Positions 615 through 59,352 of a DNA stretch of 64,000 nucleotides are shown here, piece by piece. Origin of the DNA: Bacillus sp. EB01 (lineage in GTDB: Bacteria > Bacillota > Bacilli > Bacillales > Cytobacillaceae); assembly GCF_000613125.1 (NCBI RefSeq), contig NZ_HG964497.1:5058378-5122377 (forward strand), written 5' to 3'. The translations under genes were made by a program, and so were the position numbers. Under the pieces are notes generated by a model. That model searched no databases and had not been told where the DNA came from. It was given only the letters and a program-made list of their open reading frames with translations. Each line of letters opens with the position of its first letter. The first letter of the stretch is position 1.

Positions 615-1184
615 CCTAGTGAGTCACCGAGTATTGCTAGTGAAAACCAACCAACCAAGAATTTGAACTGGCAATAAAGTGTGGTTCAGAAAAGTAGTCA
701 TTTGTAGTACTACTCGGTGACCTACTAGTTTACAGTTGATTACCTAGTGAATGTCCGAGTACTGCTAGTGAAAACTAACCAACCAAGATTTTGAACTGGC
801 AATAAAGTGTGATTCAGAAAAGTAGTCCTTTGTAGTACTACTCGGAGACCTACTAGTTTTTACTGTTGATTACCTAGTAGGTGTCTGAGTACTACTAGTG
901 AAATCTAACCACCATGAATTTCGACTGGCAATAAAGTGTGGTTCGGAAAAGTATTCCTTTGTAGTACTAGACATATTTACTGTTGATTACCTAGTGAGCG
1001 TCCGAGTATTGCTAGTGAAAACTAACCAACCAAGAATTTCGACTGGCAATAAAGTGTGGTTCAGAAAAGTAGCCCTTTGTAGTACTACTCGGAGACCTAC
1101 TAGTTTTTACTGTTGATTACCTAGTGAGTGTCCGAGTACTGCTAGTGAAAACTAACCAATCAAAAGTCTCGACTAGTAATAAAG
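615..1184. repeat. Tandem array, about 4.5 copies of a 117-130 bp unit
   Basis: Copies start with CCTAGT at 615, 743, 873, 990 and 1120, and the last stops after AATAAAGTGTG. Each unit carries CCGAGTACTGCTAGTG near its left end and TAGTACTACTCGGAGACC near its right end. These are imperfect inverted repeats about 70 bp apart, so a unit can fold into a long hairpin. The middle (AACTGGCAATAAAGTGTGGTTC) is the best conserved part. The copy at 873 has lost part of its right arm and is shorter. CTAG occurs about fifteen times. The array fills the gap between racE and gerM, and open frames through it look like by-products of the repetition. Confidence 0.95.
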
Positions 1185-1327
1185 TGTGCTTAACCACAGC
1201 TTCACTTTTACTAATGCAATTTTTAAAGATTGTAAGCAGCAACCCACTGTTTTATTTTTCAAGGCTTGGTCTAAAATCTCCCGGGGCTCGTATACATGTA
1301 GTACAAACTGTCTCGGGAGGGATTTTC

Positions 1328-2380
1328 ATGTCCACAACTAAACCTAAGGTGCTGGCATCGGCTGTGCTGGTCACTTCGATTTTGCTATCAGGGTGCGGCC
1401 TATTCGGAAATGAAACGGTCAAAAAGATTGACCCGCCAAAAAGCACTTCTTTTGAAAATGAAAAAGGGGTAACAGGTACACCAGAAGAAGGTGAATCGGC
1501 AGAAACACAAGGCACTCTTAAAACAGAGCTCTATTTGATCGATAAAAATGGCTTCGTGGTTTCCCAGGCACTCGAGCTGCCAAAAACAAATTCAATCGCC
1601 AGACAGGCTTTGGAATACCTTGTTGAAAACGGACCAGTATCTGAAATGCTGCCGAATGGCTTCCGGGCAGTCCTTCCAGCGGACACAGACATATCAGTCG
1701 ACATCAATGATGACAAAGTTGCCACAGTGAATTTTTCAAAGGAATTCAAGAACTACCAGCCTGAAGATGAATTGAAAATCCTGCAGTCTGTCACCTGGAC
1801 ATTGACCCAGTTTGACTCAGTTGACAAAGTCAAGCTGAAGCTAAACGGGCACGAGCTCACTGAAATGCCAGTCAATGGCACACCAATTAGCGATTCCTTG
1901 TCAAGGGATTCGGGTATTAACCTCGACTCCTCAACCGTAACGGATATCATGAACACCAGACCGGTCACAGTTTACTATGTTGGCGGCGAAGAAGGCTCCT
2001 ACTACTATGTACCTGTGACAAAGCGCGTTAGCAATTCAGTCGCCAGCGACATAGAAGCTGCTGTCCAGGAGCTAGCGAAAGGACCATCAACAACCAGCCT
2101 TGAAAGTGAATTCATGAACCAGGTAAAACTTCTCGACGATCCAAAAATTGAAGGCGAAAAAGTCACGCTCAACTTCAATGAAGCGGTCTACCACAGCTTT
2201 GAAGAAAAAATCATTTCCGAACAGCTCATGGATGCCCTTGTCCTCTCCCTCACAGAGCTGGATGGCATCAAGGAAGTATCCATCCTAGTTGATGGCAAGG
2301 CCGAACTCGTCCAAGAAGATGGAAAGAAATTGACAGCGCCGGTCACGCGCCCTGAAAAAGTCAATACTGGTAGTTTCTAA
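1328..2380 (+). CDS. gerM: Spore germination lipoprotein GerM
   Basis: GerM is a membrane-anchored lipoprotein with two GerMN (sporulation/germination) domains, needed for sporulation and later germination in B. subtilis. The 350-aa product begins with a lipoprotein signal (LLSGC, Cys23). It has two related domains at about residues 70-180 and 200-335, separated by a Ser/Asp-rich linker. I chose the ATG at 1328 because GGGAGGG lies 7 bases upstream and the lipobox falls at the proper distance. The frame is open back to 1124, but that extension is only repeat sequence. Arms CTCCCG and CGGGAG flank the leader, and the second covers the ribosome site. A TATACA sequence at 1291 might be a sigma-E-like -10, but its -35 is poor. 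Confidence 0.93.
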   Translation: MSTTKPKVLASAVLVTSILLSGCGLFGNETVKKIDPPKSTSFENEKGVTGTPEEGESAETQGTLKTELYLIDKNGFVVSQALELPKTNSIARQALEYLVENGPVSEMLPNGFRAVLPADTDISVDINDDKVATVNFSKEFKNYQPEDELKILQSVTWTLTQFDSVDKVKLKLNGHELTEMPVNGTPISDSLSRDSGINLDSSTVTDIMNTRPVTVYYVGGEEGSYYYVPVTKRVSNSVASDIEAAVQELAKGPSTTSLESEFMNQVKLLDDPKIEGEKVTLNFNEAVYHSFEEKIISEQLMDALVLSLTELDGIKEVSILVDGKAELVQEDGKKLTAPVTRPEKVNTGSF

Positions 2381-2415
2381 AAAACAATATTTGTTATACT
2401 ATATAGAGAAAATCA

Positions 2416-2448
2416 AAGAGGCAGCCCAAAAGCCGCCTCTTCTTTCTT
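2416..2448 (+). terminator. Terminator-like hairpin between gerM and rph
   Basis: AGAGGC and GCCTCT arms around an 11-12 base loop are followed by a T/C-rich tract (TTCTTTCTTTTTTT). It probably ends gerM transcripts. Confidence 0.7.
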
Positions 2449-2503
2449 TTTTTGAAAAATGGGTCGACACTCATTTAAGAGCTAAATTAGGGAGGACTTT
2501 CAT

Positions 2504-3259
2504 ATGCGATACGATGGCAGGGAACCACTTCAATTACGCAATATACATATTGAAACCAATTATTTAAAACATCCAGAGGGGTCCGTTCTAATCTCCGTTG
2601 GTGACACAAAAGTCATTTGCTCAGCCAGCATCGAGGAACGAGTCCCTCCGTTTATGCGCGGCGCAGGTAAGGGATGGATTACTGCTGAATATTCCATGCT
2701 TCCCAGGGCCACGGAGCAGCGCAACATCCGTGAATCGTCCAAGGGCAAGGTGACCGGCCGGACGATGGAAATCCAGCGCCTGATCGGGCGCGCTCTCAGG
2801 GCGGTTGTTGACCTTGAGGCGATTGGCGAAAGAACAGTTTGGATTGACTGCGACGTCATCCAGGCAGATGGGGGAACCAGAACCGCCTCCATTACCGGAG
2901 CATTTATAGCCATGACGCTAGCCCTCAACGGTCTCGCCCAAAAAAGGGGTCTGACCCCATTTCCGATAACCAATTTCCTCGCGGCTACAAGCGTTGGAAT
3001 TCTTGAGGATGGACATGCTGTTCTTGATTTAAATTATGTAGAAGATTCAAAAGCATTGGTTGATATGAATGTCGTCATGACCGGAAGCGGTGAATTTGTT
3101 GAGCTCCAGGGAACTGGAGAGGAGTCAACTTTTTCACGGCAACAGCTAAATCAAATGCTTGAGGCCGCAGAAGCTGGGCTGGTTGAATTGTTTGAGCAGC
3201 AAAGAATTGCGCTTGGCACAGACATTTCGGGTAAAATAGACTCTAGGATTTCAAAGTAG
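2504..3259 (+). CDS. rph: Ribonuclease PH
   Basis: A phosphate-dependent 3'-5' exoribonuclease that trims extra nucleotides after CCA in tRNA precursors; the family forms a hexameric ring. The 251-aa product is full length for the family and begins with MRYDGREP. It has the conserved stretches [33 protein letters not shown] and [19 protein letters not shown], the last carrying the phosphate-site Asp/Thr/Arg cluster. The ATG follows GGGAGGA with normal spacing. It is the first gene of a tight rph-rdgB-yfcE-type unit, with a 16-base gap to the next gene, as in B. subtilis rph-ysnA-ysnB. Confidence 0.97.
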
Positions 3260-3275
3260 TTAGGAGGCAGATCCT

Positions 3276-3884
3276 ATGAAAGAAGTAATCATAGCAACCA
3301 AAAATGCCGGAAAGGCGAAGGAATTCGAAGCCATTTTTGCAGAAAAGGGCATTAAAGTCCTGACGCTGCTGGATTTTCCAAATGCGCCTGATGTAGAAGA
3401 GACAGGAACGACCTTTGCAGAAAACGCGATTCTCAAAGCAGAAACAATCTCCAAGAAGCTGGGTAAGGCAGTAATCGGTGATGATTCAGGCCTTGCAATC
3501 GATGGGCTGGAAGGCCGACCTGGTATTTATTCAGCGCGTTATGCAGGAGAAGCGAAAAACGATGAGGCCAATATTGATAAGGTTCTCGAAGAATTAAATG
3601 GTACTACCGAAGAAAACCGTACTGCCCGCTTCCATTGCGCCCTGGCATTCGCAGTTCCAGGACAAGAGACGATTACCGTAGAAGGTACATGCGAAGGCAT
3701 CATTCTTACAGAGCGGCACGGCACAAACGGTTTCGGCTATGACCCAATTTTTTATGTGCCGAGCCTTGGCCGGACAATGGCTGAGCTTTTAAAGGAAGAG
3801 AAAAATGCGATCAGCCACCGGGCTAATGCCTTATCGAAGCTTCGAGTGGTGCTTGATTCGAAGAATGGTGCTGATTTGGCATGA
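3276..3884 (+). CDS. rdgB: XTP/dITP pyrophosphatase (Ham1/RdgB family)
   Basis: A housecleaning nucleotide pyrophosphatase that hydrolyses XTP, ITP and dITP to monophosphates and keeps deaminated purines out of nucleic acids. The 202-aa product has the family signatures IATKNAGKAKEF near the N-terminus, ENAILKAE, GDDSGLAIDGLEGRPGIYSA with the metal-binding Asp pair, NGFGYDPIFYVP, and SHRANALSKL at the C-terminus. The start has TAGGAGG 8 bases upstream. Its stop overlaps the next start (ATGA at 3881), so the two are probably translationally coupled. It corresponds to B. subtilis ysnA. Confidence 0.96.
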   Translation: MKEVIIATKNAGKAKEFEAIFAEKGIKVLTLLDFPNAPDVEETGTTFAENAILKAETISKKLGKAVIGDDSGLAIDGLEGRPGIYSARYAGEAKNDEANIDKVLEELNGTTEENRTARFHCALAFAVPGQETITVEGTCEGIILTERHGTNGFGYDPIFYVPSLGRTMAELLKEEKNAISHRANALSKLRVVLDSKNGADLA

Positions 3885-4396
3885 AAAAGGTATTGGTTTT
3901 AAGTGATAGCCATGGCTCGGCAGCTCCGATGAGGACGCTTAAGGACAGGCACCCCGATGTGGATGTGTTCATCCATTGCGGTGATTCCGAATTGCCAAAG
4001 GATGACGAGGCATTGAAGGGGTTTGTCGCCGTCGGCGGAAATTGCGACTTCCACCCTGGCTATCCAGATGAAGAAATCGTTGAGGTAGCCGGCAGAAAAA
4101 TTCTCGTGACACACGGGCACCTATACTCCGTCAAATCGACATTGATGAGCCTGTTGTACAAAGCTCGCGAGGCAGGCGCAGACATTGTCTGCTTTGGACA
4201 TTCACATCTTCTTGGTGCAGAAATGTCAGGAGGCATCCTGTTCGTGAACCCGGGAAGCATCAGGCTGCCAAGAGGGCTTAAGGAGAAAACATACCTGATC
4301 CTGGGCATTCATGAGGACCATGTAGTGGTCAATGTTTTTGATTTGGAAAAAGGCGAACTTCCCGAATTCAAACAGCAATTCCTCTTAAAACAGTAA
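3881..4396 (+). CDS. ysnB: YfcE/MJ0936-type metallophosphoesterase
   Basis: A small cytoplasmic phosphodiesterase of the calcineurin-like superfamily, 171 aa. Metal-ligand motifs appear in order: SDSHG (res 8-12), HCGDSE, GGNCDF, THGH and FGHSH. The family cleaves model phosphodiesters with Mn2+ or Ni2+; the natural substrate is unknown. It overlaps rdgB by 4 bases and is the last gene of the rph unit, being followed by a strong hairpin. Position and size match B. subtilis ysnB. Confidence 0.92.
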   Translation: MKKVLVLSDSHGSAAPMRTLKDRHPDVDVFIHCGDSELPKDDEALKGFVAVGGNCDFHPGYPDEEIVEVAGRKILVTHGHLYSVKSTLMSLLYKAREAGADIVCFGHSHLLGAEMSGGILFVNPGSIRLPRGLKEKTYLILGIHEDHVVVNVFDLEKGELPEFKQQFLLKQ

Positions 4397-4402
4397 AAGA
4401 CT

Positions 4403-4440
4403 GGAAAAAGCGGATGCAAACCGAGCACCGCTTTTTCCGT
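4403..4440 (+). terminator. Terminator after ysnB
   Basis: An 11-bp perfect stem, GGAAAAAGCGG with CCGCTTTTTCC, with a 14-base loop. Because the A-run and T-run lie inside the stem, it could act in both directions. Confidence 0.7.
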
Positions 4441-4475
4441 TAAATTTCCAGTTGAAGAAACTTTGAGAAAACTTG

Positions 4476-4504
4476 TTGACAACTGCTTACTTGGCTACTA
4501 TAAT
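4476..4504 (+). promoter_or_regulatory. Consensus sigma-A promoter without an adjacent CDS
   Basis: TTGACA (4476-4481), a 17-base spacer and TATAAT (4499-4504): a perfect match to consensus. No coding frame follows. The first things downstream are a palindrome, a tRNA-like structured segment and then tRNA-Arg. Confidence 0.85.
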
Positions 4505-4511
4505 TAAAAAT

Positions 4512-4526
4512 GTTCGTTAAACGAAC
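4512..4526. promoter_or_regulatory. Perfect palindromic operator at the transcription start
   Basis: GTTCGTT-A-AACGAAC, with 7-bp perfect arms, lies 8 bases after the TATAAT at 4499, over the expected +1. Position and form suit a repressor site of the TetR kind (inference). No TetR gene lies in the window next to it. Confidence 0.6.
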
Positions 4527-4545
4527 GGATTCACTTTTCTATCAT

Positions 4546-4642
4546 GTCCCAGTACTCAGCTCGCTGAATATGCTTCTTTGAATAACATCAGCGCACCTGC
4601 CGAGCGACTCCTTGAATTAACTTTCTGAGGCAGGGGTGGGAT
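4546..4642 (+). ncRNA. Putative structured RNA or decayed tRNA upstream of tRNA-Arg
   Basis: The segment begins with the same 14 bases that begin the real tRNA region (ATCATGTCCCAGTA, at 4541 and 4689). Three 6-bp helices nest as a junction: GTCCCA 4546-4551 with TGGGAT 4637-4642 (one G-T), CGCTGA 4562-4567 with TCAGCG 4588-4593, and CCTGCC 4596-4601 with GGCAGG 4629-4634. Gaps between the helices are 10, 2 and 2 bases. The anticodon and T arms of a tRNA are not recognisable. It could be a remnant tRNA with its acceptor helix kept, or a new small RNA. It is transcribed from the promoter at 4476 if that is active. Confidence 0.4.
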
Positions 4643-4692
4643 AGTATCAAGACAGTTTGTGTAAAATAAACTTTATTTTATTTTTTTATCAT

Positions 4693-4766: not shown

Positions 4767-4772
4767 CTATAC

Positions 4773-4810
4773 TAGCCGGTAACCTCAAAACGAGGCTGCC
4801 GGCTTTTTCT
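4773..4810 (+). terminator. Terminator after tRNA-Arg
   Basis: The arms TAGCCGG...CCTC and GAGG...CCGGCT are followed by TTTTTCTTT. Confidence 0.85.
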
Positions 4811-9302: not shown

Positions 9303-9356
9303 GTTTTCGGCAATGGCTTTTTTAAAATGTACCTGGCTGGCTCAAGAAACAATAGT

Positions 9357-9575
9357 GTACTTGAAAAAAATTTTCCGAGTGCGAATTTAATTTTTGAAGG
9401 AGTGAAATGTCCTTGAAATATGTTTTCGAGTACGATTTCAACTTTTTTTGGAATGAAATGTCCTTGAAAGAGGGTTTCAAGTACAATTTCAATTTTTTTA
9501 AGGGTGAAATGTCCTTGAAATATGTTTTCGACGGACAATTTCAATTTCTTAGACAGTGAAATGTCCTCGACACTA
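9357..9575. repeat. Tandem array, about 4 copies of a 51-bp unit
   Basis: The core GAAATGTCCT starts at 9404, 9455, 9506 and 9558 (spacings 51, 51, 52), with a diverged half-copy from 9357. Each unit folds: GTCCTTGAAA pairs with TTTCAAGTAC in the third copy, and CTTGAAA pairs with TTTCGAG in the second, where a T-A pair has become T-G. Most changes keep the pairing. The array lies between the clpX terminator and the lonB promoter. Because 51 is a multiple of 3, a minus-strand frame stays open through it. Confidence 0.92.
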
Positions 9576-14904: not shown

Positions 14905-15035
14905 TAAAAGCTAAGTGACCTTGTAGGTAACTGAGCACATCGTAAGGTAACTTATAGAAGCTCTAAGTAACTTTATTGATGGCCAAGCTCTTCATAAAGT
15001 TACTGATAGCAGCTCTTAGTAACCTATCGTTGATT
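14905..15035. repeat. Tandem array, about 2.5 copies of a 50-52 bp hairpin unit
   Basis: AGCT(CT)AAGTRAC begins copies at 14909, 14959 and 15011. The second unit holds a perfect 11-bp stem, AGTAACTTTAT (14966-14976) with ATAAAGTTACT (14994-15004). The first has the matching stem AGTGACCTT with AAGGTAACT, in which both sides have changed together. It lies between the convergent engB and minus-strand membrane-protein genes. Confidence 0.85.
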
Positions 15036-22261: not shown

Positions 22262-22530
22262 TTTCACTAGTGAATATTTTTCTGATATAGCTACTGCCGT
22301 GCAGGGGTTAGTTACTGTCAGGCAGGTTTCATATTCTTTTTTACTAGAATATAGTCAACGGTTAGTCATCGGATTTAGTTAGTTTTCACACTCTATCACT
22401 AGCCATTTCCTTTTCTAAAATAGTTACTGCCGTGCAGGGATTAGTTACTGTCAGGTAGGTATCATAAATTATTTAGTTAATTCTAACCACCAAAGCAACA
22501 AATTCGTGACTACTTTTCACTAGCCACAAC
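22262..22530. repeat. Tandem array, two copies of a 132-bp unit plus remnant
   Basis: ACTGCCGTGCAGGG followed by TTAGTTACTGTCAGG occurs twice, 132 bp apart, each preceded by TCACTAG (22264, 22396) with a third TCACTAG at 22517. CTGCC pairs with GGCAG in the first copy and with GGTAG in the second. The first copy begins in the 12-base palindrome TTCACTAGTGAA. No gene lies in 22198-22677. Confidence 0.85.
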
Positions 22531-25582: not shown

Positions 25583-25605
25583 ATAAAATAAATTAATAAC
25601 TAAAA

Positions 25606-25860
25606 GCAAAGACAGGGAAAAGTACAATGACCCGCATGCTTTCCAGAGAGGGAGACTTACCAGCTGAAAGGTTTCCCAGGCTGCCCATTGGAAAGGTCAC
25701 CCTCGAGCTTCTTCCGCCAACGGCTAGTGCCCAGTAGTGGAAGACGGATCAACTCCGTTAAAAACATGAGAGCCGGCTCTTTTTTATGCCGGAAAAAAGG
25801 TGGTACCGCGAGCGAACTCCATTCGTCCTTTTATTAGGGATGAGTGGAGTTTTTTATTTT
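25606..25860 (+). promoter_or_regulatory. T-box leader controlling valS
   Basis: A tRNA-sensing antitermination leader. Visible parts are AGTA near the base of stem I, the AGAGAGGGAG...GCTGAAAGG distal stem-I segment, a GTC (Val) specifier at 25696-25698 on the 3' side of stem I, the T-box GGTGGTACCGCG at about 25799-25810, and the terminator formed by ACTCCATTCGTCC with GGGATGAGTGGAGT and a T-run. The reading is that uncharged tRNA-Val pairs with GTC and its NCCA end with the T-box bulge, giving readthrough into valS. Confidence 0.93.
25815..25860 (+). terminator. T-box regulated terminator
   Basis: AACTCCATTCGTCC pairs with AGGGATGAGTGGAGTT, then TTTTTATTTT. Its 5' arm is also the 3' part of the antiterminator. 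Confidence 0.9.
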
Positions 25861-31989: not shown

Positions 31990-32003
31990 AGGGCTTTTAT
32001 AAA

Positions 32004-32047
32004 GCAAAAAGGCTAAAGCGGATTTTGTCCGCCTTTAGCCTTTTTCA
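32004..32047. terminator. Bidirectional terminator between convergent genes
   Basis: GGCTAAAGCGGA pairs with TCCGCCTTTAGCC (one bulge), with AAAAA before and TTTTT after. It serves the cyclase gene (+) and the minor-pilin operon (-). Confidence 0.9.
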
Positions 32048-32962
32048 GTATGTTACTTTTATTCCTTCATTTGGATTAAAAAACCATTCGCTTGTGTCTG
32101 GCTTTGCACAAGTATTTCTAGGGATAGGATAGGAAATAAGCTTAGCCTTTGTTGAATCCAGCAAGTATGTTTTTCCAGTGATACATATTTTATAGGCGTT
32201 TCCAATTACCGTTATTTCTTTTTCGAAAATTGCATCTCCATTAATTTGTATGGCTGCAGAACCCTGGAGTTCCAAGTCTTTAAAATATGCCTCTCCATTT
32301 ACTGTTAATATCCGATTCCCTTGGATTGTTACTTTTCCTTTAAAGTAAGTAGAGTTGTTATTTGTTTTAAATTTCGGTGGTTTATTTAAGAGTTCTACTG
32401 GATAGTTCTCAATAATTTTGTAATGAGAAGGGACAGGAGTTAGTTCACCGACTCTGCTTTTTGTTGTACTTTTCTTAATAGTAAAGAACCCCGTTAAAGG
32501 CAATTTTTCATTGTTCGTTTCTCCCATACTTTCAAACTTTATTATCAACTCATTTAGTTTTTCAGGATTTGGAGTAAGGGATTTAAATGTTATTTGAAAA
32601 TTATTATTGGGTGTATCAACATTTACTTGAGCATTATTTGTTTGTAAGAGGGTTGTTAATTCACTTTTGAAGATTTGATCCAAATAATCATCACGTTGTT
32701 GTTGAGTAGGTGTTTTTCCAGAAAAGTTTTGCTGAGTTTTAGTTGCTGCTGTGCTTTTAGCAGTATTAACGTGTTTTTCTACAACTTTTTGATAATATGT
32801 TACTCCCATTTCTGCTAAGTCCGTAGCTTTGTTAATGTTATCTGTTTTATTTAGCTGGGCTCTAGTTGATAATGCCAAACCACTTAGAGAAAGAGCAAAG
32901 ATCATTGTTAAGGTAGCTATTATCATAACTATTAACAAGGCATAGCCTCTTTCACTTTTCAT
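32045..32962 (-). CDS. PilX/GspK-like minor pilin or pilus assembly protein
   Basis: 305 aa. The short leader MKSERG is followed by YALLIVMIIATLTMIFALSLSGLAL, a prepilin-type cleavage site and helix in which the usual Glu at +5 is Ile, as in GspK/PilX types that sit at the pilus tip. The rest is a soluble, Asn/Thr/Lys-rich region with a C-terminal beta-rich part containing repeated 'GNRILTVNGEAYF'-like strands. It is the third gene of a minus-strand operon; AAGGGGG precedes the ATG. The exact orthologue is not recognised. Confidence 0.75.
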   Translation of the reverse strand: MKSERGYALLIVMIIATLTMIFALSLSGLALSTRAQLNKTDNINKATDLAEMGVTYYQKVVEKHVNTAKSTAATKTQQNFSGKTPTQQQRDDYLDQIFKSELTTLLQTNNAQVNVDTPNNNFQITFKSLTPNPEKLNELIIKFESMGETNNEKLPLTGFFTIKKSTTKSRVGELTPVPSHYKIIENYPVELLNKPPKFKTNNNSTYFKGKVTIQGNRILTVNGEAYFKDLELQGSAAIQINGDAIFEKEITVIGNAYKICITGKTYLLDSTKAKLISYPIPRNTCAKPDTSEWFFNPNEGIKVTY

Positions 32963-32973
32963 ACATTTCCCCC

Positions 32974-33429
32974 TTAATATTGTTTAATAATAGTTTCAAT
33001 TTCGTAGGTTTGATTTTGATGATTTTCTACCTTTAAGTAAATATAAAGCGGATCAGCGGTGTTGATCTTCTTTTCTCCAGAAAAGCTTGCACCATCAATT
33101 TCCACATATACAGTCATCGTGTCAGGCTGTAATGGAACGAGAGTGGCAGATGACTTTCCAATGAATCCCTTTTTGAGTAATGGATCATATTTTAGTACAT
33201 ATGTTTCAGACTTATCAGCTTCAACAGTGTGCAGTTCTTGTTTATGATGGTAATTGTTTATAGTTGCTAAGATTAAGTTCGCTTCCCGATTTAGATTTCC
33301 TTTTTCGGAGATGGTGTCATAGTTTTTATTTGTACCAATTAAAACCCCATATAATAATCCGGATACCACTAGAATTAGTGATAAAGCTGCTAACAGTTCA
33401 ATTAAGGTTACCCCTCTATCATTTTTCAT
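32974..33429 (-). CDS. Type IV prepilin-like protein (PilW-like minor pilin)
   Basis: 151 aa with the class III signal MKNDRG/VTLIELLAALSLILVVSGLLYG; Glu at +5 is present. The globular part is small and beta-rich with no cysteines. GAAGGTGAG precedes the start, and the previous gene's stop lies 4 bases upstream. It is probably a minor pilin of the adjacent pilus machine, processed by the PilD at 40641. Confidence 0.8.
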   Translation of the reverse strand: MKNDRGVTLIELLAALSLILVVSGLLYGVLIGTNKNYDTISEKGNLNREANLILATINNYHHKQELHTVEADKSETYVLKYDPLLKKGFIGKSSATLVPLQPDTMTVYVEIDGASFSGEKKINTADPLYIYLKVENHQNQTYEIETIIKQY

Positions 33430-33432
33430 GGC

Positions 33433-33888
33433 TCACCTTCGAATATAAGTATATGTTTCCGATTTATCATTACTATCAGCTGGATTTTGAACAATAACCT
33501 TAAACATGATTAGATTCTCGGTAGTACTATTAATGGTAAACGAACTATTATCCATCAAAGCACTAATAGTATAGTCGCTAGCTATTGGTTCACCTAAATA
33601 TTGTTCAAGCTCCAATTTAGTTAAAGACTTTGGTTTATTTAAAACGATTCCATTGGCATCAATTAAATTTAAAACAATTAAATCTTGTTTCTCTATATTA
33701 ATTTCAATCATATTTACAATTCTTTGTGCTGTCTGCATCGTATCTAGCTTTTGCTCATTTTTTTTATTAAAGATCGCCGACTGGGTAAAAAAGCCCAGGA
33801 AGGAAGTCATTATTATCGTTAATAGGACAATTGATAAGAGAACTTCTAATAACGTAAATCCCTCTTGATTTAAGGAATTTTTGTTCAC
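33433..33888 (-). CDS. Type IV prepilin-like protein (PilV-like minor pilin)
   Basis: 151 aa. The ten-residue leader ending NQEG is followed by FTLLEVLLSIVLLTIIMTSFLGFF, a full prepilin motif with Glu at +5. I chose the GTG at 33888 over the GTG at 33900, because GAGG directly touches the latter. It is the first gene of the minus-strand operon (pilV-, pilW-, pilX-like). On the minus strand a TATAAT lies at about 33928-33933 upstream, without a clear -35. Confidence 0.8.
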   Translation of the reverse strand: MNKNSLNQEGFTLLEVLLSIVLLTIIMTSFLGFFTQSAIFNKKNEQKLDTMQTAQRIVNMIEINIEKQDLIVLNLIDANGIVLNKPKSLTKLELEQYLGEPIASDYTISALMDNSSFTINSTTENLIMFKVIVQNPADSNDKSETYTYIRR

Positions 33889-34032
33889 TCTGGCCTTCAC
33901 CCTCTTTTTTAATTAGTAAGTTTATTATACAATAATCTGGAAGTGGAAAATGTCATATTTTATATATTTCAGTGGTATTTTGCAAACATTTGAAAAATCT
34001 AGCAGTATATTTTAGGGGAAAAGGGGATTTTT

Positions 34033-34752
34033 ATGGAAGTATTTGTTTTTGGTATAGGGTCGCTCGTATTGCTCATCCCCATTTTATACCTGCTCCCGCT
34101 CGGATTAACGGCGAAAGGAAAGGTTGTTACTGCACTAATTGCCTCGTTTTTGGCCATTGTAACCGCTCTTGGAGACGGGATATTTGAACTATGGCAAATG
34201 GCCCTTTTGCTGTTTTTGTTTTCTGGATTAATTGCTTATGTCATGAATGGAAAGCTAGGAGACTTTCTTTATACTAAAAAAGTACAAGTGGAAGGATGGA
34301 ATCCACAGATACAAAAAGAAACTACTGATGACCATCACCGTTTGCCTGAACTAGACGAGGTAGTTTTTAAGGATAAGAGGGAGGATGTCTTAATCGCTGC
34401 TAAGATTCCTCAGGTGGGAGAAGATTTGCAAATATCAATAGATGAAAATGACCTCTATCAAATTTCTTACCTATCAGAAATTGCTGTTTCGAGCATGGAT
34501 AATGAGGTTGAAGTCTCCTTTCTTGATGATATTGGGTTCGATATAAGTACGGAAGCTTCTCCGGTAGAACCATCTGTTATCATCTCTGAGGAAAAACCAG
34601 GTTCTGTTGATGAAACCCTCCCGATGCTGGAATTCGATATTGTTGATCCGAATCAATCTAAAGAAGTGCAGGGATCTATGATAGAAGTCGAAGAGGAATA
34701 CTTATCCGCTGTACTTGAGGTTGCCGCTGGAATAAAGCAGGCTGAAACATAA
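34033..34752 (+). CDS. Membrane protein with acidic cytoplasmic tail, unknown
   Basis: 239 aa. Three closely spaced membrane helices (about res 4-24, 33-50, 55-72) are followed by a soluble, strongly acidic tail to residue 239 with no recognised domain. AAAAGGGGA precedes the ATG. It starts the plus-strand pilus operon ahead of the VanW-like gene and pilB. It may be an accessory factor of the pilus base (inference from position only). Confidence 0.7.
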   Translation: MEVFVFGIGSLVLLIPILYLLPLGLTAKGKVVTALIASFLAIVTALGDGIFELWQMALLLFLFSGLIAYVMNGKLGDFLYTKKVQVEGWNPQIQKETTDDHHRLPELDEVVFKDKREDVLIAAKIPQVGEDLQISIDENDLYQISYLSEIAVSSMDNEVEVSFLDDIGFDISTEASPVEPSVIISEEKPGSVDETLPMLEFDIVDPNQSKEVQGSMIEVEEEYLSAVLEVAAGIKQAET

Positions 34753-34794
34753 TAGTGAAATACTTGGGTACCCAATAGGAAGGGGTTTTTTCCT

Positions 34795-36192
34795 TTGAAA
34801 AAAAACCAGCAATTTGTAAAACTTTTTATCGTCATGTTCCTTTGTTCTGCTTATGTATTTGGGTTTTCCAATTATGGAGCTAAAGCCTTCGGTTCACTTT
34901 TCGCTGGTGGCGAAGGATACCTGCCGGGAACTGCAGTTGGAACAATTAACCTTGAAGGGAAATCCCCAAAAGAAGCATTAGATTTGCTAAAGGCTGGCCT
35001 GGCAGAGTGGCAGGCAAATACTGAGTATAAATTAGTTTACAAAGAAAAAATGATAGAGTTGGATAAAGAACAGTTCTCTTTTGATTTTGAAGGAACCGTT
35101 ACATCACTAGTCAATGGCCGGCAAAATGCACTGATTGCCAGTGTAGACGAATCGGTAATTCTAGAATGGATTACTATGATTTCTCCCCAGCTTATAGGCA
35201 AGGAAATCAACCTTAATGACCTTCATGCAAAACTTGTAGAACCGGCATCGTCTTTACAGTCTGGGGAAGTGGTTATAAAGCTTGCTGAATTTATTGTTGG
35301 AGAAATTCAGAAAACTGAAGTCATTTCTACAGGTACTGTAAACGTCAAAGAGGTTTCCCACGAACTCGAAATGGCTGTTGAAGCTTTTCAAGGAATTACA
35401 ATTCAAGCAGGTTCAGAATTTTCATTCCTTCGTTATATAGAAAATGAGAAGTTGGAGAGCCTTTCACCCAACGCGCTCAGTATGATGGCATCTGCAGTGT
35501 ACATAGCGGTGCTCGGAACTAATTTTGACCTAATTGAACGAAATATTAGTAAAGAACTCCCGGAATATAGCGATCTCGGTTCGGAAGCACGAGTTGAGCC
35601 GGAGCGGGGAATTGATTTCTCTTTTTATAACCCAAATGAGACTGAATTCAAATTGGATTTTGAATTTGCTGGAGACAGGCTTAATGCAACCATAACTGGA
35701 ACGCCATTCCTTTTTGAATATAAGGCTGTTTCAGAAGGAAAAGAGGCATTTAAGCCAAAAACGATTATTCAAAACAGTCCTCTTTTAACAACTGGCCAGG
35801 TAACGATTGAAGAAGAAGGTAAAGAAGGAAAAATCATTACCATTTACCGAGAAGTGTACAGCAATGGAACACTGATTGACACAGTTGCAATCTCCGAGGA
35901 TTATTATCCTCCTGTACCTAGGGTAGAGATTAGGGCGCTGACTGCAGTTCAGACAAATCCCGTTAGCCCAAAGCCTGATGGGACGACAGATCCAGCTCCT
36001 GGAACAAACCCGGTTGAAGGGAATCCCGTTACAGTTACGCCTCCACCTTCAGAAGGGGCAAGTGATCCTGCTGTCTCTGACCCATCAACATTGCCAGTTG
36101 AAGTTGATGATGGTGATACTCCGATTGAGGAGCCTAGTGAAAGTGGCGATGATGGCGGTCTTTGGGGCAAGCCAAACGAGCAACCTAAATAA
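34795..36192 (+). CDS. VanW/G5-like secreted or membrane-anchored protein
   Basis: 465 aa. An N-terminal signal/anchor helix (LFIVMFLCSAYVFGFSNYG) is followed by a peptidoglycan-binding-4/VanW-like region (about 45-290, with VGTINLEGKSPKEALDLL and ASAVYIAVLGTNFDLIERN), a G5-like segment (about 330-385) and a disordered Pro/Thr/Asp/Gly tail. The VanW active-like cysteines are missing. TTG start with GGAAGGGG upstream. It is likely extracytoplasmic and may help the pilus cross or bind the wall; this is inferred from domain and context. Confidence 0.7.
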   Translation: MKKNQQFVKLFIVMFLCSAYVFGFSNYGAKAFGSLFAGGEGYLPGTAVGTINLEGKSPKEALDLLKAGLAEWQANTEYKLVYKEKMIELDKEQFSFDFEGTVTSLVNGRQNALIASVDESVILEWITMISPQLIGKEINLNDLHAKLVEPASSLQSGEVVIKLAEFIVGEIQKTEVISTGTVNVKEVSHELEMAVEAFQGITIQAGSEFSFLRYIENEKLESLSPNALSMMASAVYIAVLGTNFDLIERNISKELPEYSDLGSEARVEPERGIDFSFYNPNETEFKLDFEFAGDRLNATITGTPFLFEYKAVSEGKEAFKPKTIIQNSPLLTTGQVTIEEEGKEGKIITIYREVYSNGTLIDTVAISEDYYPPVPRVEIRALTAVQTNPVSPKPDGTTDPAPGTNPVEGNPVTVTPPPSEGASDPAVSDPSTLPVEVDDGDTPIEEPSESGDDGGLWGKPNEQPK

Positions 36193-51162: not shown

Positions 51163-51233
51163 TGGTTTTTGCCATACTCGAAACAAGTTGGGGGAAAACG
51201 GAAGCTTGTTCACTAGTTATTTTATGATAGTAC

Positions 51234-51465
51234 TCACTAGTTACCACACCACCCGGGCAAGACCCTGACTATATAAAAAAATAAAATATAGTAAGTTTTT
51301 GCTATAAAATTAGGGGTTATTTTTCTGAAAAGACTACTCAGGTTCATAGTCATGGCTATTTTTACAATGATCCGGGCCAGACCCTGGCTATGGTCAATTC
51401 GGAATTTAGTAAGTTCTAACTAGTGAGATTTAGGTTATAGCTGAAAACACACCTTAATCACTGTT
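51234..51465. repeat. Tandem array, two copies of a 120-bp unit
   Basis: CCCGGGCAAGACCCTGACTAT (51252) and TCCGGGCCAGACCCTGGCTAT (51371) lie about 120 bp apart, each followed after some 20-25 bases by TAGTAAGTT. ACTAG(T) occurs at each border (51208, 51234, 51418). GCCAG-ACC-CTGGC is a hairpin in copy 2, and ACTATAT/ATATAGT one in copy 1. It occupies the gap between minD and spoIVFA. Confidence 0.75.
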
Positions 51466-53225: not shown

Positions 53226-53228
53226 TTG

Positions 53229-54964: not shown

Positions 54965-55069
54965 ATGTTTGTAGCGCACCCGTGCTACAACCGCTCAGAA
55001 CAGGTTTCAAGATTTGCGAGAGCAAACGCCTGGGTTGGCGAGTCTTAGACTAAGAGGAGGTGCAAGTTC
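54965..55069 (+). promoter_or_regulatory. L21 leader (autoregulatory mRNA element)
   Basis: The rplU leader starts with the hairpin GTAGC-GCACCCGT-GCTAC (54971-54988), then CCGCTCAGA, CAGGTTTCAAG and GCGAGAGCAAACGCCTGGGTTGG before GAGGAGGTG. The arrangement fits the known Firmicute L21 leader family, thought to bind L21 or a partner and limit the operon's expression. Confidence 0.8.
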
Positions 55070-55378
55070 ATGTACGCAATTATCGAAACAGGCGGTAAGC
55101 AAATCCGTGTAGAAGAAGGCCAAGCCATCTACATCGAAAAGCTGAACGCTGAAGCAGGCGAAACAGTTACATTTGATAAGGTTCTTTTCGTTGGCGGTGA
55201 AGATGTTAAGGTTGGCAGCCCGGTTGTTGAAGGCGCGACTGTTACAGCTACTGTTGAAAAGCAGGGCCGTGCAAAGAAAATCATCGTATTCAAGTACAAA
55301 GCGAAGAAAAACTACCGTAAAAAGCAAGGTCATCGTCAGCCATACACTAAAGTTGTAATCGGCAAAATCAACGCGTAA
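55070..55378 (+). CDS. rplU: Ribosomal protein bL21
   Basis: A 102-aa protein of the 50S subunit that binds 23S rRNA domain I. It starts [18 protein letters not shown] and ends with the RNA-binding [19 protein letters not shown], both diagnostic. Very strong ribosome site (AGAGGAGGTG). It is followed 8-11 bases later by the Prp protease gene. Confidence 0.98.
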
Positions 55379-55389
55379 GGCGTGATTTG

Positions 55390-55737
55390 ATGATAAATGT
55401 AGCGATTATTCGAAATGACACCGGCTCAATTGATTCGTTTTCAATCAGTGGCCATGCGTTTTTTGCAAAACGGGGCGAGGATATCGTCTGTGCGGGCGTA
55501 TCCGCGGTTTCGGTTGGTGCAATCAATGCCATCCATGAGATTACGGGAGTCGTTCCCGAAACGGAGATCGATTATGAAGAAGGTCTGCTCCGCTGCGTGA
55601 TTCCGGGAAACCTATCGGCGCAGGAGCAAGCTAAAATTCAGATTCTTCTCGAAGGAATGTACTACTCGCTGAAAACGATCGAAGAAGAGTACGGAAAGCA
55701 CATACGAATTACCTTCAAAAACCAGGAGGTGGAATAA
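55390..55737 (+). CDS. prp: Ribosomal-processing cysteine protease Prp
   Basis: Cuts the N-terminal extension from bL27 in Firmicutes; required because uncut L27 is incompatible with the peptidyl-transferase site. The 115-aa product has the His/Cys pair in ISGHAFFAKRGEDIVCAGVSA. It is sandwiched between rplU and rpmA, as in all species with extended L27. Start: ATG 55390 from AAGGCG, rather than TTG 55387. Equivalent to B. subtilis ysxB. Confidence 0.95.
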   Translation: MINVAIIRNDTGSIDSFSISGHAFFAKRGEDIVCAGVSAVSVGAINAIHEITGVVPETEIDYEEGLLRCVIPGNLSAQEQAKIQILLEGMYYSLKTIEEEYGKHIRITFKNQEVE

Positions 55738-56031
<294 letters not shown>

Positions 56032-56045
56032 GTTAACGTTCTGAA

Positions 56046-56081
56046 AACTCTAGCCTCCATGGCTGGAGTTTTCTTTTTGTG
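56046..56081 (+). terminator. Terminator after rpmA
   Basis: AACTCTAGCC pairs with GGCTGGAGTT over TCCAT, then TTCTTTTT. Confidence 0.85.
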
Positions 56082-56178
56082 TTTTTACTGGAAAAAGAAG
56101 GAAACTTTAAAAAGGAAGCCAGCGAAGCTAGAAAAGATACATATCCAAACCAGAATTTTCCGATAGTGCCAAATTTGC

Positions 56179-56206
56179 TTACGAACCAGGCTTTTTTTGT
56201 TATACT
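56179..56206 (+). promoter_or_regulatory. Possible promoter of spo0B
   Basis: TTACGA (56179-56184), 16 bases, TATACT (56201-56206). Moderate match. Confidence 0.45.
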
Positions 56207-56241
56207 ATGAGCAAATGAGCATTAGGTATAAGGAGTAATGT

Positions 56242-56775
56242 ATGGAAAAGAATTGGGATCTTGTTGAAGTTCTCAGGTATTCCCGACATGACTGGCTGAA
56301 CAGGCTGCAGCTGATAAAAGGGAATCTTGATTTGGATCGGATGGATTGTGCAAAAGCTGTTATTGATAAAATCATTATTGAGACTCAACAGGAATCGAAG
56401 CTTTCGAATCTTAAAATGCCCGAGCTTGCCTCTCAGCTGCTAAGAGCAAATTGGGAAGGACACCATTTCACGCTTGAATACGAGGTTTTGTACGAACAAC
56501 AATCAAAGCCGGTTGATGAAACTGCGATTACAGAGTGGGTGGCTGAATTCTTTTCCATATTGGATCAATCTGTTGAACCTTACCAGGAGAACAGCCTCTC
56601 CATCTGCCTGAACCAGGTCGAGGATGGGATAAGTTTCAATTTTGATTTTAGCGGAATAATAAAAGAGACGATGCTGCTTGGCGAACTCCTTCAGAAAGGC
56701 AGCGGCTTGAAAATTTCTGTAAGGGAGCTTACCCACGAGGAGCTCGATCTTGAGGTTTTTGTGCCGTTCTGCTAA
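56242..56775 (+). CDS. spo0B: Sporulation phosphotransferase Spo0B
   Basis: Moves phosphate from Spo0F to Spo0A in the sporulation phosphorelay. The 177-aa product has the histidine-kinase-like helical hairpin with phospho-His16 in YSRHDWLNRLQLIKGNLDL and a degenerate ATPase-like C-terminal domain. It is shorter than the 192-aa B. subtilis protein. AAGGAG precedes the start. It precedes obg, as in B. subtilis, and may share its transcript. Confidence 0.93.
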   Translation: MEKNWDLVEVLRYSRHDWLNRLQLIKGNLDLDRMDCAKAVIDKIIIETQQESKLSNLKMPELASQLLRANWEGHHFTLEYEVLYEQQSKPVDETAITEWVAEFFSILDQSVEPYQENSLSICLNQVEDGISFNFDFSGIIKETMLLGELLQKGSGLKISVRELTHEELDLEVFVPFC

Positions 56776-56922
56776 CGGATGTCCCGCCGTGTAGATCAGA
56801 AGGAAAAGTTAGTGAATGGATATGGCCATCGGGGCATGGATTTGGTCTTTTCAAGTATGACCCATAAGCGGACCCAAACCATCCACTTATGCTTTTCGAT
56901 ACAGACGGGAGGATTTTGAAAA

Positions 56923-58215
56923 ATGTTTGTTGATCAGGTGAAAGTTTATGTAAAAGGCGGGGATGGCGGCGATGGTATGGTCGCGTTCCGCCGTGAAAAA
57001 TATGTACCAAATGGCGGCCCTGCTGGCGGTGACGGCGGCAAGGGAGCCAATGTTATTTTCCAGGTTGAGGAAGGACTTAGCACTTTGATGGATTTCCGCT
57101 ATAAGCGCCATTTTAAGGCTGACCGCGGAGAACATGGCATGTCGAAAAACCAGCATGGGCGTGGTGCCAAGGATATGATTGTCAAGGTTCCACCTGGCAC
57201 AGTCGTATATGATGAAGAAACGAATGCGATCATCGCCGACCTTGTAGAAAATGGCCAAACTGCCGTTATCGCAAAGGGAGGCCGTGGAGGACGCGGCAAT
57301 TCACGGTTTGCCACTCCGCAAAATCCAGCTCCCGAGCTTTCCGAAAAAGGCGAGCCAGGGCAGGAGAGGAACGTTATACTCGAATTGAAGCTGCTTGCTG
57401 ACTGCGGGCTTGTCGGTTTTCCTAGTGTCGGAAAATCCACGCTTCTTTCCGTTGTATCTTCAGCAAAGCCGAAGATTGCCGAGTACCATTTTACAACAAT
57501 CGTACCGAACCTCGGTGTTGTTGAAACAGAAGATGGCCGCAGTTTTGTCATGGCGGATCTTCCAGGCTTGATTGAAGGTGCCCATCAGGGAGTCGGCCTT
57601 GGACATCAATTCCTGCGCCATATTGAGCGCACCAGGGTTATAGTCCATGTGATTGACATGGCAGCAACTGAAGGCCGGGATCCTTTTGAGGATTATACAA
57701 AAATTAATCAAGAGCTTCAGCAATACAATCTTAGGCTGACCGAGCGTCCGCAAATCATTGTTGCAAACAAGATGGACATGCCGGAAGCAGAGGAAAACCT
57801 GAAGGCTTTCAAGGAGCAAATCCAGGAAGATTATCCTATTTTCCCAATCTCCGCGGTTACAAGGCAGGGGCTGAGGGATTTGCTGTTTGCCATCGCTGAT
57901 AAAATTGCTGAAACACCTGAATTCCCGCTCCATGAAGAAGCACTTGAGGATACCAGTGTGAACAGGGTTGTTTATAAGCATGAGAACGAGCCGGAGCAAT
58001 TCAAAATTACCAGAGATCCAGATGGCGCTTATGTTATTTCTGGTGACAGTCTAGAAAGATTATTCAAAATGACGGACTTCTCCCGTGATGAGTCGGTTCG
58101 CCGCTTTGCCCGCCAGCTGCGCGGCATGGGTGTCGATGATGCACTAAGGGAGCGCGGCGCCCAGGATGGCGACATTGTCAGGCTGCTTGAATTTGAATTT
58201 GAGTTTATTGAGTAA
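56923..58215 (+). CDS. obg: Ribosome-associated GTPase Obg
   Basis: An essential GTPase tied to 50S assembly and, in Bacillus, to the stress response and start of sporulation. The 430-aa product has the glycine-rich Obg fold (res 1-158: [30 protein letters not shown]), the G domain with G1 GFPSVGKST (165-173), [26 protein letters not shown], and the C-terminal OCT domain (about 350-430). GGGAGGA is 9 bases before the ATG. Confidence 0.98.
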
Positions 58216-58239
58216 TGGCTTAAGCGGGGTGTGGTTGGT

Positions 58240-58695
58240 TTGAGTTATAAAAAGGGAGATTTGAAATTTTATCTGGTCAGGGAAGATGTATTGCCGGAAG
58301 CGATGAAAAAGACCATTGATGCAAAGGAACTGCTTGATCGGGGCAAAGCTTTGAATGTTGGCGAAGCTGTCCGCCAGGTTGACCTTAGCCGGAGTGCTTT
58401 TTACAAGTACAAGGATACGGTCTATCCATTTTCACAAATTGTGAAGGATCGGCTTGTCACACTCGTTTTCCATTTGGAGGATCGTTCCGGCACGCTATCG
58501 CAGCTGCTTGGCATAGTTGCAAATGCCGGCTGCAATGTCCTGTCCATCAATCAATCCATCCCACTTCAAGGTAGAGCAGTTGTTACACTATCCCTTAATA
58601 TTAAAGAAATTAAGGTGGATATAGAAGACTTGCTTGAAACCTTAAAGCAGCTTGAATACGTTGAAAGTGTCGAAATACTCGGCACAGGAGCTTAA
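58240..58695 (+). CDS. pheB: ACT-domain protein PheB
   Basis: A 151-aa protein with an N-terminal helical region (about 1-70, [25 protein letters not shown]-like [12 protein letters not shown]) and a C-terminal ACT domain ([28 protein letters not shown]). The exact function is not known. B. subtilis pheB precedes pheA (prephenate dehydratase); here a terminator follows instead. TTG 58240 suits GGGGTG at 58226; the GTG at 58231 is an alternative start. Confidence 0.92.
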
Positions 58696-58701
58696 ATTTT
58701 T

Positions 58702-58747
58702 GTAAAGGGTGTTCCAAGTATGCTTGGGACACCCTTTCTTTCGATTG
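58702..58747 (+). terminator. Terminator after pheB
   Basis: AAAGGGTGTTCCAAG pairs with CTTGGGACACCCTTT around TATG, then CTTTC. It ends the obg-pheB unit. Confidence 0.88.
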
Positions 58748-58819
58748 TATGATTTCCGCTGCAAAAAGGGAATGTCCCAAGAATAATCATCATAGGGATA
58801 CAAAGGAAACCATCTGTGA

Positions 58820-58940
58820 ATTAACATCGCAGAGACAAGGCGGCTCTTTGCTTGGCTTGAGGTGCATTTTGCCTGTCACGTGGAATTTCGGCGTATAGGG
58901 CGGCCTGGAGTGCCAGTCCAGCTCAGAGCCTAGCCAGTTT
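58820..58940. repeat. Degenerate piece related to the dispersed element
   Basis: ATCGCAGAGACAAGGC, TTTGCCTGTCACG and CAGCTCAGAGCC resemble parts of the element at 45240 (CATCGCAGGGACAGGC, TTTGCCTGTCACG, CTCCAGCGCC). The order is partly kept and the ends are decayed. The surrounding 58748-59138 holds no gene I can support. Confidence 0.45.
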
Positions 58941-59138
58941 TCATCCTTAACATAGCTTACTTGATTATCTTGTTACAATTATGGCTTGGATATCTTAATT
59001 GCTACAACTTCAGCTGATGGTAAGACTTATCCTTCAGGCCACCACAAGAGTATACTTCGAAAGCATATACATCGCACGTAATTATGCGATAGCACACCGG
59101 AAAACTTCCATGAAAAAATGAGTGAGAAGTGTTTAGAA

Positions 59139-59352
59139 AAGGATTTAGTAGACGAGCCGGCAGAGTGAGATTCGTCGAGAAAAAGGTATTTACTAGACGG
59201 AACTAGGTCCGGCGGGGTGAGATTCGTCTAGAAAAAGGTGTTTACTAGACGGAACTAGGGCCTGCGGAGTAAGATTCGTCGAGAAAAAGGTATTTACTAG
59301 ACGGAACTGGGGCCGGCAGAGTGAGATTCGTCTAGAAAAAGGTATTTACTAG
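59139..59352. repeat. Tandem array, 4 copies of a 52-bp hairpin unit
   Basis: ATTCGTC starts at 59170, 59222, 59274 and 59326, exactly 52 bp apart, with a preceding half-copy from 59139. Each holds TTCGTC(T/G)AG, then AAAAAGGTRTTTA, then CTAGACGGAA: a 7-bp stem CGTCTAG/CTAGACG in the second unit, with one mismatch where the copy reads CGTCGAG. Units alternate between CGTCGAG and CGTCTAG. It lies upstream of the niaR terminator. Confidence 0.95.

What the first reader, a model, noticed from the sequence alone, without database searches (positions are those of the whole stretch)
615..59352. Six unrelated intergenic arrays fall into two period classes, about 51 bp and about 125 bp
Seen: 9357-9575 (51, 51, 52 bp), 14905-15035 (50, 52) and 59139-59352 (52, 52, 52) form one class. 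615-1184 (128, 130, 117, 130), 22262-22530 (132) and 51234-51465 (120) form another. Copies inside an array are alike, but I see no alignment between arrays beyond a shared taste for ACTAG(T) at borders and inverted arms within units. Inference: one mechanism builds arrays of fixed unit length and architecture from local sequence, or arrays diverge as a family and are kept uniform locally by gene conversion. This is not how transposed elements look, where copies match between loci. About 51 bp is close to five helical turns.
Basis: partly seen in the sequence, partly recalled or inferred. Interest (0 to 1): 0.8.

Follow-up and report, generated by a model that had tools for sequence, protein, structure and literature searches.

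The report
Two kinds of bacterial satellite DNA
The spaces between genes in this bacillus hold two unrelated kinds of short tandem repeat: one of about 130 letters that sits beside small transposase genes and looks spread by them, and one of 52 letters, already described in print, whose different-looking versions share a hidden layout of paired sites that look made for a DNA-binding protein.

Summary
The two period classes are real but are two different things. (1) ~125 class: A1 (130 bp, ~4.6 copies) and its decayed kin A4 and A5 are dispersed CTAG-rich repeats of 108-132 bp. Relatives of A1 and A4 lie directly upstream of RAYT-like (REP-associated tyrosine) transposase genes: in the genus 10 of 16 such genes have at least 5 CTAG in the 600 bp upstream, 0 of 16 downstream, background 7 of 660 windows. 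I read them as RAYT-linked, BIME-like elements, though repeats flank the gene on one side only. (2) ~51 class: A2, A3 and A6 belong to the 52-nt constant-length, variable-sequence satellites already published for Bacillus (PMC8161180). What I did not find there: inverted ~14-bp half-sites recur across sequence families, often with a GTC core. In family F1, 115 of 120 spacings are exactly 52 bp, opposite half-sites are 20 or 32 bp apart, half-sites are nearly invariant while loops are near-random, and variable stem positions show no pairing covariation. That favours double-stranded DNA-binding sites over RNA hairpins. The 20/32 geometry is firm in F1 and holds in about half of the families. The binding protein is unknown.

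The parts
615..1188 (+). A1: tandem array, 130 bp x ~4.6, CTAG-rich, RAYT-linked class (nearest to the repeats of RAYT loci L205/L209/L164)
   Evidence: TRF; 11 further rows at E<=0.001 in the genome; matches repeats upstream of RAYT genes L205, L209, L164 at E 1e-32, 1e-25, 6e-17 and, weaker, L210 at 6e-11; reversed control empty
9356..9570 (+). A2: tandem array, 51 bp x 4.2, 52-nt class, family F2 (TGTCCTTGAAA / TTTCGAGTACA half-sites)
   Evidence: TRF; orthologous array in G007 (51 bp x3.4); F2 units in 10 fetched loci; inverted half-site centres 19 and 32 bp apart
14905..15035 (+). A3: decayed 52-nt class array (AAGTNACTT half-sites)
   Evidence: 25-bp sub-period at 14934-15023; 52 bp x3.2 in G007 at the same gap; no array at this gap in G005, a related array elsewhere in G005
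22262..22530 (+). A4: decayed two-copy member (~132 bp spacing) of the CTAG-rich RAYT-linked class, nearest to RAYT locus L166
   Evidence: 80-bp internal repeat at 82%; match to the stretch upstream of RAYT L166 at E 2e-6, reversed control empty; second genomic locus at E 2e-36
51210..51465 (+). A5: decayed likely member (~120-132 bp) of the CTAG-rich class; no RAYT partner found
   Evidence: 20-bp repeat at 119 bp spacing; two short weak matches (E 0.06 and 4.65) 126 bp apart at L281, a 132 bp x2.3 array with ACTAGT borders; only E 0.048 matches to RAYT flanks
59156..59352 (+). A6: tandem array, 52 bp x 3.8, 52-nt class, family F3 (TTCGTCTAGTAAA half-sites); absent at this gap in G007
   Evidence: TRF; one of 19 F3 matches in the genome; no array in the G007 gap and a 52 bp x4 array of other sequence after the same gene in G002

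Best explanation
Two unrelated classes. The ~130-bp class consists of tandem arrays of non-autonomous repeats that were most likely spread and multiplied by RAYT-like HUH tyrosine transposases encoded elsewhere in the genome; repeat subfamilies of these arrays lie upstream of three of the four RAYT genes. The 52-bp class consists of arrays of inverted ~14-bp half-sites, in family F1 exactly 20 and 32 bp apart (about two and three helical turns, five in all), so that sites of one orientation recur on one face of the DNA. I infer that a sequence-specific, cooperatively bound DNA-binding protein, or a family of such proteins, holds the spacing fixed, while copy number changes by slippage or unequal recombination. 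Shown: dispersal, RAYT linkage, F1 geometry, conserved half-sites against near-random loops, no pairing covariation in F1. Inferred: transposase action, protein binding, function.
For: ~130 class: arrays of 129-131 bp (one of 117/126) in 9 of 14 loci tested; four RAYT-like genes in the genome, over the Pfam cut-off, best NCBIfam match REP_Tyr_transpos at 53.7-76.7 bits; CTAG>=5 in the 600 bp upstream of 10 of 16 RAYT genes in the genus, downstream 0 of 16, background 7 of 660 windows; matches A1 to L205/L209/L164, A4 to L166, the L044 array to L210/L163; no evident strand preference among 11 loci (3 sense, 3 antisense, 5 between convergent genes). 52 class: 115 of 120 same-strand F1 half-sites exactly 52 bp apart, opposite-strand distances 20 (61 cases), 32 (81), 31 (3); 62 of 62 bracketed half-sites keep >=9 of 10 core bases; identity 0.93 in boxes, 0.34 in loops, 0.26 by chance; pairing at variable pairs mostly not above expectation. 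Across families, by rule (highest TRF score in each of 17 clusters of 74 arrays): inverted arms score >=7 in 10 of 17 (null 6.2%), GTC in both arms of 7 of those 10, in at least one arm of 9; half-site information 5.93 against 4.18 +- 0.25 permuted (0 of 100). In 27 published families of other species arms score >=7 in 16 (null 2.6%), GTC in both arms of 6 of 16 (null 8.8%).
Against: RAYT: CTAG repeats lie upstream only; the unit is 108-132 bp, not a 20-40 bp hairpin; NCBIfam scores of the four are under the curated cut-off of 80; only 3 of 6 units fold at z<-2; 6 of 16 genus RAYTs and 22 of 23 loci in other genera lack the CTAG enrichment; A5 has no RAYT partner; A1 also matches the repeats of a second RAYT type (L210). 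52 class: no protein identified; no cognate neighbour gene. The 18-21.5 bp distance holds in 5 of 10 rule-chosen clusters and in 8 of 14 by cluster median (null 22%), and in 7 of 16 published families (null 26%), so it is modest outside F1. The higher figures (9 of 13) used arrays that I picked. The half-site orientation test gives 3 of 200 with my picks but 16 of 200 by rule. 3 of 16 published families hold GAC instead. 3 of 9 units fold strongly, so hairpins in some families are not excluded; 52-nt repeats are reported to be transcribed in B. coagulans (PMC8625621, passages).
Confidence: 0.55

Rival explanations
1. The 52-bp arrays act as RNA: tandem hairpins in 3' regions that protect transcripts, serve as small RNAs or sponge a protein (one of the two ideas in PMC8161180).
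For: Arrays rarely lie between divergent genes (tandem 22, convergent 7, divergent 2 of 31; all gaps of 30 bp or more: 361, 97, 96); inverted arms are common; 3 of 9 units fold at z<-2; transcripts reported in B. coagulans (PMC8625621, passages).
Against: In F1 variable stem positions show no excess Watson-Crick pairing (pair 7:39 0.11 against 0.37 expected, 10:36 0.35 against 0.53; one weak exception, 19:27); 6 of 9 units do not fold at z<-2; an RNA role does not by itself explain the constant period.
Confidence: 0.17
2. The 52-bp arrays are REP- or MITE-like mobile elements of an unidentified transposase; the arms are its binding sites, and tandem copies arise as in BIMEs.
For: F1 and F3 are dispersed with about 20 matches per genome; F3 is expanded in G000 (19) against G007 (6) and G005 (2); different families share gaps.
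Against: No 52-class family found beside 39 RAYT loci (seven families searched; one marginal F3 match at E 0.09); no cognate neighbour gene; half-sites stay conserved although loops are near-random, which dead copies would not do; no clean empty site with a target duplication seen (only A6/G007 looked at).
Confidence: 0.25
3. Mutational origin only: replication slippage on quasi-palindromes yields units of preferred length without selection.
For: Copy number differs between orthologous arrays (A1 4.6/1/3.1; P1 3/5/2).
Against: Half-sites are conserved and spacing exact while loops are near-random in F1.
Confidence: 0.08

Closest known systems
52-nt (and 20-21-nt) constant-size, variable-sequence tandem repeats of Bacillus (Subirana and Messeguer 2021, PMC8161180, main text read)
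   Same: Period 51-53, several sequence families per genome, not coding, partly conserved between relatives with changed copy number, short sequences often present with their reverse in one repeat; a protein needing a constant repeat size is already proposed there.
   Different: That paper states that there is no sequence conservation between species, and its main text has no hit for transpos, 130 or palindrom. Here: inverted half-site layout measured in F1, GTC-centred half-sites across families, no pairing covariation in F1, and a separate RAYT-linked ~130-bp class.
REP/BIME elements and their RAYT transposases (PMC2817692, PMC3733652, PMC6006769: passages; PMC3116915: listing only)
   Same: Intergenic repeats, several in tandem, linked to RAYT genes, with repeat subfamilies matched to RAYT paralogs.
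   Different: Tandem unit of 108-132 bp instead of a 20-40 bp palindrome; CTAG instead of GTAG/CGTC prominence; repeats upstream of the RAYT gene only; host is a Bacillaceae genus. Word counts: firmicutes 0 and bacillus 0 in PMC2817692; firmicutes 0 and bacillus 2, both bcr1, in PMC3733652; bacill 0 in PMC6006769.
bcr1 repeat of the B. cereus group (named in PMC3733652, passage)
   Same: Dispersed repeat of a bacillus.
   Different: Listed there among MITEs; not compared by sequence here.

Membership tests
52-nt constant-size satellites of Bacillus | Repeat length 51-53 in many sequence families of one genome | tested here: met
   17 of 24 intergenic arrays at 51-52 in 464 kb of G000; 15 of 19 at 51-53 in 320 kb of G007
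52-nt constant-size satellites of Bacillus | Partial conservation between close relatives, array length seldom kept | tested here: met
   A6 absent in G007; A2 4 against 3 units; copy number differs at 2 of 5 orthologous F1 loci
REP/BIME with RAYT | RAYT-family Y1 transposase encoded in the genome | tested here: met
   PF01797 above its cut-off; best NCBIfam match NF047646, but at 53.7-76.7 bits under the curated 80
REP/BIME with RAYT | RAYT gene flanked on both sides by inverted repeats of the family | tested here: not met
   CTAG>=5 upstream in 10 of 16, downstream in 0 of 16
REP/BIME with RAYT | Repeats dispersed elsewhere and matched to the RAYT paralog | tested here: met
   reversed control empty; but A5 has no partner and A1 also matches L210
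REP/BIME with RAYT | 20-40 bp hairpin with a conserved head tetranucleotide | tested here: inconclusive
   3 of 6 units fold at z<-2; head not mapped
REP/BIME with RAYT | Cleavage of the repeat by the transposase | not testable with these tools
   Needs purified protein and single-stranded DNA
Structured RNA element | Compensatory base changes in the stem | tested here: not met
   F1 only, 75 units: no excess pairing at variable pairs except a weak one at 19:27 (27 of 500 permutations); other families not tested
Structured RNA element | Match to an Rfam family | tested here: not met
   Window and 7 of 20 sampled stretches: only T-box, tRNA, L21 leader and c-di-GMP-I, none in an array
CRISPR array | Repeats separated by unique spacers | tested here: not met
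   Units are head to tail (sequences)
MITE | Target-site duplication at an otherwise empty site | tested here: inconclusive
   Only A6 had an empty relative looked at, and its gap is wholly replaced

The most novel reading that the evidence does not exclude
All 52-nt (and perhaps 20-21-nt) satellites of Bacillaceae are docking arrays for one diversified family of DNA-binding proteins that read half-sites around a GTC core, spaced by two and three helical turns: a bacterial satellite chromatin in which the recognition sequence drifts from species to species while the mounting geometry stays.
Probability: 0.25. Interest if true: 0.85.

Novelty: new variant of a known kind. Interest (0 to 1): 0.58.

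Why it matters
The fixed 52-nt length with variable sequence was left in print without an established explanation (PMC8161180). A measured half-site layout gives a direct test: which protein binds, and whether half-turn misphasing breaks it. The ~130-bp class would extend RAYT-linked repeats to long tandem arrays in a Bacillaceae genus with several transposase-repeat pairs in one genome, a setting for studying how transposase and repeat coevolve.

Tried and rejected
One mechanism for both classes: rejected, different partners. RNA hairpin selection in F1: no covariation. A cognate gene beside 50-ish bp arrays: 131 flanking proteins (108 after removing pairs over 70% identical) compared all against all; besides orthologs only one group at 24-34% identity (L036, L175, L178/L183, L179) and one pair at 55% (L145, L146) recur; none was annotated. 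52-class families beside RAYT genes: none in 39 loci but a marginal F3 match. RAYT tree: one starred branch only, so whether the array-bearing RAYTs form a clade is unresolved. Predicted synteny offsets between G000 and G007 failed for most stretches, so the orthologous comparison is limited to the window and five F1 loci. CTAG arrays beside RAYTs in other genera: 1 of 23 loci. Rfam: nothing in arrays.

Mended after checking: my first count of half-site distance (9 of 13 families) and the half-site test used representatives that I picked by hand; one search repeats both by rule and gives weaker figures, which I use. I had also placed the G005 array of L148 at the A3 gap; it lies in another gap.

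Literature. My statement that I did not find the RAYT link or the half-site layout in print rests on these nine searches, on PMC8161180 (main text, parts 1-5; supplement not seen) and on passages of PMC8625621, PMC2817692, PMC3733652 and PMC6006769. PMC3116915 was seen in listings only. PMC5001198 (passages) held nothing relevant. The 2020 J Bacteriol paper by the same authors was not held and was not seen.

Rows dropped: of the 26 PF01797 rows I examined 18; 16 had an intact ORF and enter; IS200-type and fragment rows were left out; arrays with coding cover >=0.5, under 2.4 copies or under score 120 were left out.
Full report
What was checked. The window is G000:C1:5058378-5122377 of a 5,282,259-bp single-contig genome. 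TRF finds A1, A2 and A6 as arrays and not A3, A4 and A5; the latter look decayed and are supported by relatives to different degrees.

Period classes. In 464 kb of this genome 24 intergenic arrays pass score 120: sixteen of 52 bp, one of 51, one each of 20, 46, 84, 117 and 130, two of 21. Five dinucleotide shuffles of the same DNA give none. G007 (320 kb) has 19 intergenic arrays, 15 at 51-53. In 80 kb each, G001 and G002 show one 52-bp array, G005 one of 51, one of 42 and one of 130, G018 one of 51 (2 copies) and one of 98, G012 one of 21 and a 52-bp one counted as coding. Two genomes of other families, 40 kb each, show no intergenic array. Among 61 named loci near pheB, 52-bp arrays occur in Neobacillus dielmonensis, N. 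muris and Aquibacillus kalidii, a 53-bp one in a Ruminococcus MAG and a 103-bp one in Heyndrickxia camelliae, of 15 intergenic arrays in all. The 52-nt class, and a 20-21-nt class, are published (PMC8161180).

The ~130-bp class. A1 has 11 further rows at E<=0.001 in its own genome, 67-74% identical for the six longest and 73-81% for the short ones. TRF shows arrays of 129-131 bp (one of 117/126) in 9 of 14 loci examined, with 85-93% match between adjacent copies. The genome encodes four RAYT-like Y1 proteins besides IS200-type ones; their best NCBIfam match is the REP-associated tyrosine transposase, under the curated cut-off. Right upstream of RAYT L164 lies a 130 bp x3.9 array; upstream of L163 and L166 lie CTAG-rich repeats of two other subfamilies; L167 lacks them. 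Across the genus the pattern recurs with units of 130, 117 and 108 bp. CTAG counts of at least 5 in 600 bp occur upstream of 10 of 16 RAYT genes, downstream of 0 of 16 and in 7 of 660 background windows. A1 matches the repeats of L205, L209 and L164 and, weaker, L210; A4 those of L166; the L044 array those of L210 and L163, with an empty reversed control; A5 has only marginal matches, but two short weak matches point to L281, a 132 bp x2.3 array with the same ACTAGT borders. Outside the genus 1 of 23 RAYT loci has the enrichment. So the class works like a RAYT-mobilised repeat. I do not file it as REP, because the gene is not flanked on both sides and the unit is long.

Orthology. G007 keeps about one unit at A1 where G000 has about 4.6, and G005 has 3.1. 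A2 and A3 have arrays in G007; at the A3 gap G005 has none, and its related array lies elsewhere. A6 is missing in G007, where pheB is followed by a short terminator-like stretch and the next gene; after the same gene G002 has a 52 bp x4 array of another sequence. Of five F1 loci with orthologs the unit count differs in two (P1 3/5/2, P3 4/1) and is equal in three.

The 52-bp class in detail. Family F1 has 19, 22 and 27 matches in G000, G007 and G005 and none in five other genomes of the genus at E<=0.01. Its unit is ATTGGNNNCRTTTYR, 15 variable bases, the inverse, and a 7-bp linker. Of 120 successive same-strand half-sites 115 are exactly 52 bp apart, 4 are 51 and 1 is 49; opposite-strand centres are 20 (61 times), 32 (81) or 31 (3) bp apart; all 62 half-sites lying between two detected ones keep at least 9 of 10 core bases, so the conservation is not only a detection effect. 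Mean pairwise identity is 0.93 in the boxes, 0.34 in the loop and 0.26 by chance (156 rows that include both-strand readings of palindromic units). At variable stem positions pairing is mostly not above expectation (75 units). This argues for inverted double-stranded half-sites.

Across families. By rule, 74 arrays fall into 17 sequence clusters, and I take the array with the highest TRF score in each. Ten of 17 have inverted arms of score 7 or more (null 6.2% of 19,290 shuffled units). The arm centres lie 18-21.5 bp apart in 5 of these 10; taking the median over members, in 8 of 14 clusters (null 22%). Half-sites read towards the close dyad share A/T flanks and a core: information 5.93 bits against 4.18 +- 0.25 for permuted half-sites (0 of 100 reach it), but random orientation reaches it in 16 of 200. 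GTC stands in both arms of 7 of the 10 and in at least one arm of 9. With representatives picked by hand the figures were higher (9 of 13 distances; 3 of 200 orientations); I do not rely on them. On 27 published family consensuses from other species arms are significant in 16 (null 2.6%); GTC stands in both arms of 6 of these 16 (null 8.8%), GAC in 3 (null 9.3%); the 18-21.5 bp distance holds in 7 of 16 (null 26%). Inverted half-sites are thus general, the GTC core is well supported though its orientation is not settled, and the 20/32 distance is exact in F1 and modest elsewhere. A TGTC-N-TTCAT form recurs by eye in F6, F13, coagulans_8 and litoralis_42.

Mechanism. For the 52 class I infer a protein that reads ~14-bp sites and needs fixed phase: 20 and 32 bp are close to two and three turns, 52 to five. 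PMC8161180 makes a similar remark for 20-21 nt and already proposes a protein that polymerises on the DNA. The factor is unknown: no cognate neighbour gene was found, and no 52-class family lies clearly beside RAYT genes.

Verdict. The 52 class is known; the half-site layout and the RAYT link of the ~130 class were not found in the papers searched.

Noticed in passing
window 25600-25833 and 54979-55055: T-box leader and ribosomal protein L21 leader, both above the Rfam gathering score.
   Followed up: no
window 32001-36000: GC drops to 0.366 against 0.41-0.48 in the other 4-kb bins, with three ORFs on the minus strand at 32045-33900; possibly acquired DNA.
   Followed up: no
L155 17368-17814 (G007): Intergenic array of 32 bp x13.9 at 97% identity, close to three helical turns.
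   Followed up: no
L035 9700-9855 and L047 19102-19225: 21-bp direct arrays whose reverse complement reads GAAAAGTGCCC / GAAAAGTGTCC, resembling by eye the half-sites of the 52 class.
   Followed up: no
L040 15785-16105: Array of 84 bp x3.8 with a 42-bp sub-period.
   Followed up: no
L191 645-1654 and L179 1117-1609 (both G005): Two kinds of array side by side in one gap: F3 x15.7 next to F1, and a 130-bp array next to F1.
   Followed up: no
L146 15569-15682 (G005): A 42 bp x2.7 array that by the alignment falls in the gap where the window has A5.
   Followed up: no
L201 976-1062 and 2399-2484 (G004): 42-bp repeats holding AGAACCGTCCC on both sides of a 262-aa RAYT of another clade.
   Followed up: no
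L202 and L215 (G007), L165 (G000): Broken Y1 transposase copies with in-frame stops.
   Followed up: no
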